Assembly: GCA_017505585.1 (NCBI GenBank)
Contig: JAFVOZ010000054.1
Coordinates: 1 to 39,609, forward strand
Reading direction: 5' to 3'
Length of the DNA stretch: 39,609 bases
Source of the DNA: a bacterium
Lineage (GTDB): Bacteria > Cyanobacteriota > Vampirovibrionia > Gastranaerophilales > Gastranaerophilaceae
The translations under genes were made by a program, and so were the position numbers. The stretch's first letter is position 1; each line of letters opens with the position of its first letter. The notes beneath the pieces were generated by a model that saw only the letters and a list, made by a program, of their open reading frames with translations, was not told the DNA's origin and did not search any database. Shown one piece after another: positions 188 to 4,537 of this stretch.

Positions 188-2548
188 ATGACAATTAAGG
201 TTCATTCGGAAAACTTAATACTCATAAATAACCTGACAAAAACAAGTGACAGGCTGGCAACGGCTATGGGGAGATTATCAACAGGTTATAGAATAAATTC
301 AGCTTCAGACGGTGCTGCGGAATTAATGTTATCCAAAGGTTTAGAAAAACAAATTTCAGGTCTTAGTGTTTGCAATGATAATGCAAATATGGCAAAGAGT
401 TTATTAACTGTTGCAGACGGTTCATTATCTGAAATAACATCAATGGCTCAAAGAATAAGAGATATAGCACTATCATCTGCAAACGGAATATATAGTGAAG
501 ATGAAAGAAGAGCATATCAAACAGAAGTTGATGCACTTGTGAGTGAAATAAAAAGACAAACAGATGAAGCTAGGTATAATGATTATAAATTATTCAACAA
601 TGCAAAATCGCCTACAATTAAAACAGGTGCAGGAACAACAGGAAGCACGGGTGCGCATAGTGTTAAGAAAATATCACAAGCCCAAGCCGAAGCTCAAGGC
701 TATACTTGTGTCACTACTGCTCAAGAATTAAAAGATGCTCTTGTTGCAGGAGATTCTTCTTGCAAAGTTATGCTTATGGCAGATATTAACCTTGATGATC
801 TGGGTCTTGATGCAACAGGTTCTAACTGGAGCGCTGTTGGAGATGCTACAACAAGATTCCAAGGAACACTTGATGGCAATGGGTATACAATTCATAATCT
901 TAAGATTAATGCAACAAGTGATTATCAGGGGCTAATTGGTGATGCCGCTACAAGTAGCACAATAAAAAACTTAAAAATTAATAATGCGAACATTGAAAAC
1001 ACAGGAACTTATACAGGAATACTTACGGGTGCGAATTCAGGAACAATTGAAAATTGTTCAATTACAAATTCAGATATCAAAAGCGAAGGCGAAAGAACAG
1101 GAGGACTTGTTGGGCAAAACTTAGGCAAAGTAGATAGTTGCAAAATCGAAGCAAATGTCAAAGGGAAAGCAAACACCGGTGGCCTCGTTGGAATTAATTC
1201 CAATCTGATAATATCTTGTATTGTCACAGGAAGTGTTGTTGGAAGTGAAACTAACACAGGCGGCTTTGTAGGACAAAACAACACATCAGGTAGTTACAAC
1301 GGCAAAATTGAAAATTGTTACTCAAGAGCCGATGTCACAGGAACAACTATAACAGGCGGGTTTGTAGGCGAAAGCAAAGGAAATAGTACAATTATTTCTT
1401 CATACGCAACAGGAAATATTACGGGAAGCAATGATTATACAGGTGGTTTCGCAGGTTTCATACGCAACAGAGGCTCAATTACATCTTGTTATGCAAAAGG
1501 AGATGCCAGGGGCAACGGAGATGGCGTCGGTGGTTTTATTGGTAGAATAGAAAATTTAGGCACCATCAATTCTTGTTACGCTAAAGGGAACGTATCAGGA
1601 AACGGAGAAAGTACTGGTGGTTTTGTGGGTACAAGTGCAGAAGATAGCACAATACTTAAATCGTACTCAACAGGAAATGTCACAAACAATGGAATATATA
1701 CTGGTGGTTTTGTAGGATTAGCCTACAATAACACTTCCATTACCTCTTGTTATTCGACAGGGGATACTGAGAGCAGCGGAAATTACACAGGCGGATTTGC
1801 TGGAAGAATTTATTTAAATTCGTCATCCGTTGTTTCTTGCTATTCGACAGGAAGTGCAGTAGGTAAAAATTACACGGGTGGCTTTGCTGGTAGCATAGAG
1901 CAAGGCTTGATAAGCAATTCGTATTCTACAGGAAATGCAACTGGAACAACTGGTTCAACAGGTGATTTCTTGGGGCAGGCTTCCACACAAGCTATCCTTG
2001 ATAATTATAGTTTTGATGGCGCTTTAAGCAACGGCATAGGGACTGGTACAAATAATGCAATTGGTGCAGATGATACAGCAGGTAAAAATACAGATTGGTT
2101 TAAAGAGAAAAATAATTTAATAAATATTCTCGGAGATGGCTGGGATTATTCAAATAGTGACTTAACTTTCCAAGTGGGAACAAATGCAGGTTTAAATCAC
2201 ACATTAAGCATTGACTTAAACTTTGGTGTTGATGATTTTGAAATTGATGTAATGTCACAAGATTCAGCAAGAGATAGCTTAAGCGCAATTGATGAATTAA
2301 TTGAATATGTAACTCAAATGCAAGGTAAAATTGGAAGTGCAACAAATGTTATGGATTCAGTTCTTGGAAATAACACTCAAACACAAATCAATTTGGTTGA
2401 TAGTAATGCAAGATTAATTGATGCAGACATTGCAAGAGAAAGTGCTGAAGTTGTTAAAACACAGATAAGACAAAATATGACAGCATCACTTCTTGCCCAA
2501 ACTGGCACAAACATGAGCCAGATTGTGCTTGCGTTATATGGACTTTGA
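188..2548 (+). CDS. fliC: Flagellin with a large GLUG-repeat beta-helix insertion
   Basis: Filament protein of the flagellum, exported through the flagellar type III system. Residues 1-138 are a typical flagellin N-terminal D0/D1 region (RLSTGYRINSASDGAA, then ADGSLSEI and RDIALSSANG). Residues from about 690 to 786 are the matching C-terminal D1/D0 region (ARLIDADIARESAE, QTGTNMSQIVLALYGL). Between them, where flagellins carry the exposed D2/D3 domain, lies a WSAVG...FQGTLDGNGYTI segment and then about 12-13 repeats of the form TGGFVG...ITSCYSTGNVTG (roughly residues 246-615), the GLUG motif known from IgA-protease-like and adhesin proteins. Eight repeats carry Cys at the same place, which is unusual because most flagellins have none. 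At 786 residues it is well above the usual 270-500. No SD precedes the ATG, but the start gives the normal flagellin N-terminus. No other flagellar gene is in the window. Confidence 0.9.
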   Translation: MTIKVHSENLILINNLTKTSDRLATAMGRLSTGYRINSASDGAAELMLSKGLEKQISGLSVCNDNANMAKSLLTVADGSLSEITSMAQRIRDIALSSANGIYSEDERRAYQTEVDALVSEIKRQTDEARYNDYKLFNNAKSPTIKTGAGTTGSTGAHSVKKISQAQAEAQGYTCVTTAQELKDALVAGDSSCKVMLMADINLDDLGLDATGSNWSAVGDATTRFQGTLDGNGYTIHNLKINATSDYQGLIGDAATSSTIKNLKINNANIENTGTYTGILTGANSGTIENCSITNSDIKSEGERTGGLVGQNLGKVDSCKIEANVKGKANTGGLVGINSNLIISCIVTGSVVGSETNTGGFVGQNNTSGSYNGKIENCYSRADVTGTTITGGFVGESKGNSTIISSYATGNITGSNDYTGGFAGFIRNRGSITSCYAKGDARGNGDGVGGFIGRIENLGTINSCYAKGNVSGNGESTGGFVGTSAEDSTILKSYSTGNVTNNGIYTGGFVGLAYNNTSITSCYSTGDTESSGNYTGGFAGRIYLNSSSVVSCYSTGSAVGKNYTGGFAGSIEQGLISNSYSTGNATGTTGSTGDFLGQASTQAILDNYSFDGALSNGIGTGTNNAIGADDTAGKNTDWFKEKNNLINILGDGWDYSNSDLTFQVGTNAGLNHTLSIDLNFGVDDFEIDVMSQDSARDSLSAIDELIEYVTQMQGKIGSATNVMDSVLGNNTQTQINLVDSNARLIDADIARESAEVVKTQIRQNMTASLLAQTGTNMSQIVLALYGL

Positions 2549-2556
2549 TAAATAAT

Positions 2557-2733
2557 TTACCTCGCCCTAAAAAACCTTTGATTTGTTCCGCCTTTTCCGA
2601 TTCTTAGACTCACTCTTTTTAAACATTTAGGGCAAAAGCCAACATAGTGCGTGCCTGCTGCATTTTTATACACTCTTGTGTAAACATTGCAACACTCAAA
2701 TAAAATACCTAAATATTTTCTTTTCTCAACCAT
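2557..2733 (-). CDS. Small zinc-ribbon protein (58 aa)
   Basis: This frame encodes 58 residues from ATG at 2733 to TAA at 2557. It has two cysteine pairs: CC at 14-15, and CPKC at 34-37 inside VGFCPKCLKRVSLRIGKGG, followed by a basic aromatic tail (GGTNQRFFRAR). This looks like a small treble-clef or zinc-ribbon protein. The middle resembles short uncharacterised proteins I recall from planctomycetes and cyanobacteria (pattern AGT.Y.G.CP.C...V...IG.GGT.QRFF), but I could not search for it. It starts 3 nt after the stop of the prepilin peptidase gene, so it is probably translated by coupling as the last gene of that operon. It converges on the flagellin gene with 8 nt between stops. Function unknown; nucleic-acid or protein binding is possible. 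Confidence 0.7.
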   Translation of the reverse strand: MVEKRKYLGILFECCNVYTRVYKNAAGTHYVGFCPKCLKRVSLRIGKGGTNQRFFRAR

Positions 2734-2736
2734 TGC

Positions 2737-3735
2737 TTACCCAAATATTCCAGAGACTATTTGTTGCCAATCTAAAAACACAGAAACCATTGAAGCAAGA
2801 GCAAGAATTGGCCCAAGCGGCAACATTGAAGCTTCAATTTGTTCTTGATTTTTCAATGAGGTTAAAATATTCCATAAAGCATACGCAACACCGATTAATA
2901 TTACACCTAGCAAAATGTATAATAAAATCGGATTAGTTTCTTTTAAATCAGAATACGCCAACACACATAACACGACGCAAGCCAAAATTGCACCTACAAG
3001 AGAATAAAAAAGCTTATAATTTTTCGCTTTAAAATATTTAGTAAGCAAAACAGGCACATAATATAAAATTGCGACAACAGCTGTTAAAGCAATAAACAGC
3101 AACATTGTATACAAGAATTTTTCAGCACCGAAGAAGGCACCCATTGCCATTGCAATTATCGTATCTCCTTCGCCAAAAAATCTGTGTTTGATGAAAAGAT
3201 AACCCGCATTTGCAAAAACTTCAAAAATTACAAATGCTATGAATATCCCTAAAATCGTGTCATAAGGACTGCAATTAAAATAAAAAATATTGTACAAAAC
3301 ACCAAGCCCAAGCAAAATATAGCCATGGCTTTCCAAAATAACCTGTTCTTTTATGTCTTCAATTGAAAGTAAAATGAAAAACGTGAAAATCAACATGAGC
3401 AATACGGTTTTCAAATTAAGCCCGTAAGCCCAATATATCAGCAAATATGAAGCCCCTGTAACAAGCTCTGCAAGCGGATATTGCCAAGATATCGGCGCAG
3501 CGCAAAACTGGCATTTACCTCTTTGAAATATAAAAGATAAAAGAGGAATATTGTTATACCAACGAAGTTGCTCATTACACTTAGGACACTTTGAACGACT
3601 CATCACAAAATCTTCGCCTGCCAAACTGCGAAGCGCAACAACATTTATAAAACTACCCATACACAGCCCGATAATAAAAACATAAAAAGCCGTGAACCAA
3701 TAAAATAAATCCGCAGAAGTAATATTTTCAAACAT
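2737..3735 (-). CDS. pilD: Prepilin peptidase (type IV leader peptidase, A24 family)
   Basis: Integral membrane aspartyl protease that removes leader peptides from type IV pilins and pseudopilins and usually methylates the new N-terminus. The N-terminal GSFINVV motif (residues 27-33) is followed by the cytoplasmic zinc-binding domain with C50-x2-C53 and C75-x2-C78. The two catalytic aspartates fit Asp127 (SIEDIKEQ) and Asp191 (FFGEGDTI, the GxGD motif). Several hydrophobic segments follow, and at 332 residues it is somewhat longer than most family members because of extra C-terminal membrane helices. It starts 1 nt after the sigF stop, so the two are probably co-translated. With comEC in the same window it suggests a type IV pilus or DNA-uptake pilus; no pilin gene is visible here. 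Confidence 0.9.
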   Translation of the reverse strand: MFENITSADLFYWFTAFYVFIIGLCMGSFINVVALRSLAGEDFVMSRSKCPKCNEQLRWYNNIPLLSFIFQRGKCQFCAAPISWQYPLAELVTGASYLLIYWAYGLNLKTVLLMLIFTFFILLSIEDIKEQVILESHGYILLGLGVLYNIFYFNCSPYDTILGIFIAFVIFEVFANAGYLFIKHRFFGEGDTIIAMAMGAFFGAEKFLYTMLLFIALTAVVAILYYVPVLLTKYFKAKNYKLFYSLVGAILACVVLCVLAYSDLKETNPILLYILLGVILIGVAYALWNILTSLKNQEQIEASMLPLGPILALASMVSVFLDWQQIVSGIFG

Positions 3736-3736
3736 A

Positions 3737-4537
3737 TTATGACTCTTTTTCCGTTATATAATCAAACATTTTTTTAAGGGCTTTTTTAACAGTCCTTGAA
3801 ACTTGCATTTTAGACATTTTAAGCTCTCTTGAAATTTCAGCTTGTGATAGTCCTTCAAAGAAATTAAGATTAATTATTTGCGATTCAAGAGGTGTCAAAA
3901 CTTTAAACGCTTCCTTCAGCATAATTCTATTCAAGAAATTATCAAAAGCTTCTTCATAATCTTCAACAGGAATTTTTTCTTCAAGAGAAATGGGAATGTC
4001 GCTATCATCACTCATTATGCTGTCTGAAGAAATAGGCGTTGTTCTGCGCTCGACTGTTCTTGCTTCTTGCACTTGCATTGGTGTAAGATTCATCTCGGCC
4101 GCAATTTCTTCTTCGGTTGGCGGATTTCCGAGTTTTTCCGTTAAATCTTTAATAAAAGAATTAACTCTGTATGAAAGTTCATAAACTTCTCTTGGGACAC
4201 GAACAAGCTTTGCTTTATCTCTTAAATAATGTCTAATTTCGCCAACAATAAAATATGTTGCATAAGTTTTAAAACTTGCACCGTATTCAGGACGATAATT
4301 GTTTATTGCTTTCATAAGCCCGATTGAGCCCACTTGCATAATGTCTTCCACAGGGTCATTCGACCTTCTTGCAAGCGAATAAGCAATTTGTTTTGTAAGA
4401 GGCATATAAGCAAGCACAATTAAATCTTTGATTTTACTTTTTGTTTTGGTTGTTTCTTCTGTCGGAATATTCCAAAGTTCACTAAACCATTTCGAAGTAT
4501 CAGGAAGATTAAAATTTATAATTTCGTTCAGGCCCAA
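3737..4537 (-). CDS. sigF: Alternative sigma factor, SigF/SigB type (group 3)
   Basis: RNA polymerase sigma factor lacking region 1. Region 2 is clear (DIMQVGSIGLMKAINNY and FKTYATYFIVGEIRHYLRD), followed by region 3 (VPREVYELSYRVN...LGNPPTEEEIAAEMNL) and region 4 with a helix-turn-helix (LTPLESQIINLNFFEGLSQAEISREL.MSKMQVSR). These are hallmarks of the SigB/SigF/SigG class; in cyanobacteria SigF controls pilin genes and phototactic motility. The start is TTG at 4537, preceded by a good AGAGGTG ribosome site that overlaps the stop region of the upstream phosphorylase gene. The prepilin peptidase follows directly, fitting a role in pilus or surface-structure expression. No anti-sigma factor or anti-anti-sigma factor is adjacent. 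Confidence 0.88.
   Translation of the reverse strand: MGLNEIINFNLPDTSKWFSELWNIPTEETTKTKSKIKDLIVLAYMPLTKQIAYSLARRSNDPVEDIMQVGSIGLMKAINNYRPEYGASFKTYATYFIVGEIRHYLRDKAKLVRVPREVYELSYRVNSFIKDLTEKLGNPPTEEEIAAEMNLTPMQVQEARTVERRTTPISSDSIMSDDSDIPISLEEKIPVEDYEEAFDNFLNRIMLKEAFKVLTPLESQIINLNFFEGLSQAEISRELKMSKMQVSRTVKKALKKMFDYITEKES

What the first reader, a model, noticed from the sequence alone, without database searches (positions are those of the whole stretch)
2557..2733. Unlisted 58-residue zinc-ribbon gene at the end of the sigF-pilD operon
It is shorter than usual gene-calling limits, but starts 3 nt after pilD and has a coherent Cys pair and conserved-looking GGTNQRFF tail. It sits between pilus and flagellar genes and may be a small regulator.
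Basis: partly seen in the sequence, partly recalled or inferred. Interest (0 to 1): 0.6.

Follow-up and report, generated by a model that had tools for sequence, protein, structure and literature searches.

The report
Small zinc-ribbon gene tied to flagella
A tiny 58-residue gene that is missing from the protein-family databases searched is a real, strongly conserved zinc-ribbon protein found almost only in bacteria with flagella, in several phyla, and lost when flagella are lost, so it probably helps build or control the bacterial swimming tail.

Summary
The ORF is real: window 2733-2557, minus strand, 58 aa, starting 3 nt after pilD. It belongs to a broad family with no Pfam, NCBIfam or PDB match above threshold. 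All 108 distinct sequences collected keep four cysteines (CC...CPxC) and nine other residues; median dN/dS is 0.08. The family occurs through Gastranaerophilales (this genome's order) and in Planctomycetota, Myxococcota, a Nitrospina and a deltaproteobacterium.

Presence nevertheless tracks flagellin: 43/43 carriers in the order (4/39 non-carriers, about 3.5 expected from incomplete assemblies), 44/46 in Planctomycetota (non-carriers 62/150), 11/11 in the Myxococcota sample (non-carriers 109/274). On a tree it is lost together with flagellin, never the reverse. In several unrelated arrangements it lies beside fliF, fliN-flgI, flgG-H-I, flgF/G or fliO-P.

Best explanation: a small, basic, cytoplasmic zinc-ribbon accessory of the flagellum, probably a regulator acting on flagellar mRNA or on assembly. 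The flagellar link is well supported; the mechanism is inferred.

The parts
2557..2733 (-). 58-aa single-domain C4 zinc-ribbon gene (CC...CPKC, GGTNQRFF tail)
   Evidence: ORF and translation; homologues; purifying selection; conserved columns
2737..3735 (-). pilD, prepilin peptidase (PF06750, PF01478); upstream neighbour, not a consistent partner
   Evidence: adjacency to the zinc-ribbon gene not conserved
3737..4537 (-). sigma-70-family factor ('sigF'); conserved pair with pilD across the order, independent of flagellin
188..2548 (+). flagellin with a GLUG-repeat insert, convergent, stop codon 8 nt from that of the zinc-ribbon gene
   Evidence: PF00669, PF07581, PF00700

Best explanation
The ORF encodes a member of a widespread, uncurated family of single-domain C4 zinc-ribbon proteins (mostly 56-82 aa) that serves the bacterial flagellum. 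Shown here: gene reality, purifying selection, invariant cysteines, near-confinement to flagellin-bearing genomes in three groups, co-loss with flagellin, and repeated placement beside flagellar genes. Inferred: it is cytoplasmic (no evident signal or membrane segment), binds one zinc through CC + CPxC, and uses its basic surface and GGTxxRFF tail to bind RNA or an assembly partner, so tuning flagellar gene expression or assembly. It is probably not a late filament part, since no sigma-28-type site lies upstream. My estimates: some flagellum-serving function 0.88; regulator acting on nucleic acid 0.45; assembly or export accessory acting on protein 0.3.
For: Co-occurrence with flagellin: order 43/43 versus 4/39 (p 5e-19); Planctomycetota 44/46 versus 62/150 (p 4e-12); Myxococcota sample 11/11 versus 109/274 (p 6e-5); first eight carriers found outside the order all flagellin-positive. 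The control gene sigF shows no association. On a tree of 79 genomes, independent pairs go the same way 6-7 times and never the other way (p 0.016-0.03). Flagellar neighbours within about 2 kb in 4 of 12 arrangement classes of the order and separately in Planctomycetota beside flgF/G and fliO/P. Net charge +11 here, family median +7. All-beta model, pLDDT 79. No sigma-28-like site before 110 copies against 9 of 40 flagellins. Precedent that a zinc ribbon can bind flagellin mRNA: HP0958 (PMC5947703).
Against: Many flagellated genomes lack it, including flagellin-positive members of other orders of the same class and 62 Planctomycetota, so it is not a core part. Two Planctomycetota carriers (G435, G454) have no detected flagellin. 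Most copies lie away from flagellar clusters. The tree rests on one marker gene and the sign test is modest. Nothing here shows zinc, RNA or protein binding.
Confidence: 0.6

Rival explanations
1. It is an assembly or export accessory: the zinc ribbon binds a protein of the basal body or export gate (for example FliF, FliN, FliH or an export chaperone) rather than nucleic acid.
For: Neighbours in several lineages are basal-body and export genes (fliF, fliN, fliO, fliP, flgF/G) more than regulators; no sigma-28-like site, as expected of an early-stage factor.
Against: Neighbours differ between lineages, so no single partner is indicated; the strongly basic surface also fits nucleic acid.
Confidence: 0.3
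2. It serves motile life in general (chemotaxis, surface sensing, stress of motile cells) and follows flagellin only because both follow lifestyle.
For: Most copies are not beside flagellar genes; the implication is one-way, carriers have flagella but many flagellated genomes lack it.
Against: Repeated flagellar neighbourhoods; within the order it is in essentially every flagellated genome and no other, with genome sizes similar in both sets; the control sigF does not follow flagellin.
Confidence: 0.12
3. It is a part of the sigF-pilD (type IV pilus) operon.
For: In this genome it starts 3 nt after pilD in the same direction.
Against: None of 29 other sigF loci (28 of them with pilD beside sigF) has it there; sigF-pilD occurs in genomes without flagellin and without the gene.
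Confidence: 0.03
4. It is a chance open frame.
For: Short; convergent with a flagellin whose stop codon is 8 nt away.
Against: Intact homologues in several phyla and unrelated surroundings, strong purifying selection.
Confidence: 0.005

Closest known systems
HP0958 (FlgZ) of Helicobacter pylori, zf-RING_7 (PF02591) C4 zinc-ribbon proteins
   Same: A zinc ribbon involved in flagellation; in HP0958 the ribbon binds flaA mRNA and the protein contacts FliH and RpoN (PMC5947703).
   Different: HP0958 has a long coiled-coil domain and two CXXC pairs 18-26 residues apart; here there is no coiled coil and the first pair is adjacent (CC). No member matches PF02591 and the PDB profile search does not find HP0958.
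RNHCP domain (PF12647)
   Same: Weak match of 30 of 43 members around the F-x-C and CPxCL regions.
   Different: Best E 0.0003; the window protein scores 16.9 against a cut-off of 24. Not a member; at most a distant relative.
ELOF1 and ZitP zinc ribbons (solved structures)
   Same: Small all-beta zinc ribbons; ELOF1 aligns with TM-score 0.51 over 44 columns.
   Different: No Foldseek match is significant (E 2.4 and 4.3), so only the fold class is suggested.

Membership tests
zf-RING_7 / HP0958 family | Match to PF02591 | tested here: not met
   None of 43 members matches PF02591 at E up to 0.1
zf-RING_7 / HP0958 family | Two CXXC pairs 18-26 residues apart | tested here: not met
   Invariant pattern is CC-x18-CPxC
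zf-RING_7 / HP0958 family | N-terminal coiled-coil domain | tested here: not met
   58 aa, beta strands only in the model
RNHCP (PF12647) | Score above the curated cut-off | tested here: not met
   16.9 bits against 24
C4 zinc ribbon (fold class) | Four conserved zinc ligands in two close pairs | tested here: met
   C14, C15, C34, C37 invariant in 108 sequences
C4 zinc ribbon (fold class) | Significant structural match to a solved zinc ribbon | tested here: inconclusive
   All-beta model, pLDDT 79; best zinc-ribbon match TM 0.51 but E 2.4
C4 zinc ribbon (fold class) | Bound zinc | not testable with these tools
   Needs a purified protein
Flagellum-associated gene | Presence confined to flagellated genomes, beyond shared ancestry | tested here: met
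Flagellum-associated gene | Control by a sigma-28-type promoter | tested here: not met
   0 of 110 upstream regions, against 9 of 40 flagellins
Flagellum-associated gene | Motility or flagellation defect on deletion | not testable with these tools
   Needs an experiment

The most novel reading that the evidence does not exclude
A previously unrecognised class of flagellar factor: a stand-alone basic zinc ribbon that binds flagellar transcripts or the nascent export machinery and couples expression to assembly in several phyla, a minimal counterpart of HP0958.
Probability: 0.3. Interest if true: 0.8.

Novelty: new variant of a known kind. Interest (0 to 1): 0.6.

Why it matters
The flagellum is one of the best-studied bacterial machines, so a conserved gene nearly confined to flagellated genomes in several phyla, yet with no entry in Pfam or NCBIfam, is a real gap in the parts list. 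It offers a small, specific, testable target in groups (Gastranaerophilales, Planctomycetota, Myxococcota) whose flagellar control is little known, and it could serve as a genomic marker of flagella in incomplete genomes.

Tried and rejected
Rejected: membership of the sigF-pilD operon; spurious ORF; phage or plasmid origin (no match in phages, plasmids or viral contigs); membership of PF12647 or PF02591. Led nowhere: PDB sequence searches, Foldseek, PHROGs (only weak matches to families of unknown function), a sigma-28 site upstream, a search for fusion proteins (long open frames at some Planctomycetota copies look like GC-rich read-through; not proven). An apparent fliI neighbour in L022 is atpD, judged from its sequence, and was not counted. 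The 44th hit (G090) has two stop codons and E 9e-4 and is taken as chance. The conserved 170-aa neighbour in Planctomycetota is core to that phylum (180 of 196 genomes), so it says nothing about flagella. Paper searches found no description of the family, among open-access papers only.

Full report
OBSERVATION. The ORF stands as described: 2733-2557 on the minus strand, 58 codons, ATG start, 3 nt after the pilD stop. pilD (PF06750, PF01478) and a sigma-70-family factor lie upstream in the same direction, and a flagellin with a GLUG-repeat insert ends 8 nt away on the other strand. No Pfam model reaches its cut-off, NCBIfam has none, and the PDB gives nothing significant.

REALITY. A search of 99 related genomes found intact homologues in 43 genomes of the same order, counting this one, the others at 50-70% identity. 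A genome-contig scan identified the order as Gastranaerophilales from record titles and gave relatives in records titled Myxococcota, Deltaproteobacteria, Nitrospina and Planctomycetota. 108 distinct sequences keep C14, C15, Y18, R20, N24, Y30, G32, C34, P35, C37, G46, G49 and R53 without exception. In 32 independent close pairs the differences at codon positions 1, 2 and 3 are 111, 69 and 510; over 214 pairs median dN/dS is 0.08 and none reaches 0.5.

CONTEXT. The sigF-pilD pair recurs in relatives (pilD beside sigF in 28 of the 29 other sigF loci examined), but none of them carries the zinc-ribbon gene there. Across the order the gene sits in 12 arrangement classes. Four include members with flagellar genes within about 2 kb: fliF-fliG-fliI, fliN-flgI-flgH-flgG, flgG-flgH-flgI, and the flagellin of this window. 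In Planctomycetota one copy precedes flgF/flgG and two lie beside fliP, with a probable fliO between. In many Planctomycetota copies a conserved gene of about 170 codons and unknown function lies directly downstream; that gene is core to the phylum (180 of 196 genomes) and so says nothing about flagella.

CO-OCCURRENCE. Flagellin_N (PF00669) was used as the sign of a flagellum. In the order: carriers 43 of 43 positive, non-carriers 4 of 39. The summed incompleteness of the flagellin-positive assemblies predicts 3.5 missing copies; 4 were seen, and three of these four (G001, G005, G075) also lack sigF, which most of the order has. Planctomycetota: 44 of 46 against 62 of 150. Phylum sample around L090, a record titled Myxococcota: 11 of 11 against 109 of 274. 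The first eight carriers found outside the order all have flagellin. The control gene sigF shows no association (p 0.54).

PHYLOGENY. Related genomes are not independent, so a tree of 79 genomes was built from a FliF-like paralogue present in nearly all of them, flagellated or not. Supported branches force at least 7 changes of flagellin and 10 of the zinc-ribbon gene. Among independent pairs that differ in one trait, the other mostly goes the same way (6-7 cases) and never the opposite way (p 0.016-0.03). One marker gene is a modest stand-in for a species tree. As the gene is mostly unlinked from flagellar clusters, co-loss is not explained by single deletions.

MECHANISM. Shown: a small basic protein (net charge +11 here, family median +7), invariant cysteines, an all-beta model of moderate confidence (pLDDT 79). 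Inferred: one bound zinc, cytoplasmic location, nucleic-acid or protein binding. No sigma-28-like site lies before any of 110 copies, whereas 9 of 40 flagellins have one, so it is probably not a late filament gene. The nearest functional precedent is HP0958 of H. pylori, whose zinc ribbon binds flaA mRNA and which contacts FliH and RpoN (PMC5947703). By sequence and architecture this family is not a member of the HP0958 family.

KNOWN BACKGROUND. Loss of flagella within Gastranaerophilales is described: only some genomes have complete flagellar sets and the others keep a subset (PMC4040986; PMC3787301). The zinc-ribbon family itself was not found in the literature searched.

LIMITS. The family is absent from many flagellated genomes, including flagellin-positive members of other orders of the same class, so it is an accessory. 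Flagellin presence is a proxy for flagella. Genomes are mostly metagenome assemblies. The two Planctomycetota carriers without detected flagellin (G435, G454) were not resolved. Function is untested.

Noticed in passing
L193 (G000:C84:4500-11000); same locus type in L168-L246: A second FliF-like gene (about 560 aa) in a locus with FliE, FliH and a transglycosylase occurs in nearly all Gastranaerophilales, including genomes without flagellin. It may be a flagellin-less, flagellar-type secretion system retained by non-motile members.
   Followed up: partly
window 188-2548: Flagellin of 786 aa with a large GLUG-repeat and pectate-lyase-like insert between its N and C domains; the genome has 11 flagellin matches.
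   Followed up: no
L066:8218-8724, L105:8239-8796, L108:4322-4840, L133:980-1489: A Planctomycetota protein family of about 170 aa with no Pfam match, present in 180 of 196 genomes of the phylum and often directly downstream of the zinc-ribbon gene.
   Followed up: partly
L006:398-1420 and 17 further loci: A protein of about 340 aa beginning MGLAASQARFLGLTARKSN, with no convincing Pfam match, lies next to the zinc-ribbon gene in 18 loci.
   Followed up: no
L257, L260, L270, L271, L273, L275: Sigma-28-like sites (TAAAG, 14-16 bases, then YCGAY) precede some Gastranaerophilales flagellins but not others, so the many flagellins may fall into different regulatory classes.
   Followed up: partly
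window 2737-4537: The sigma factor-pilD gene pair is conserved across the order irrespective of flagella; its function in these bacteria is open.
   Followed up: no
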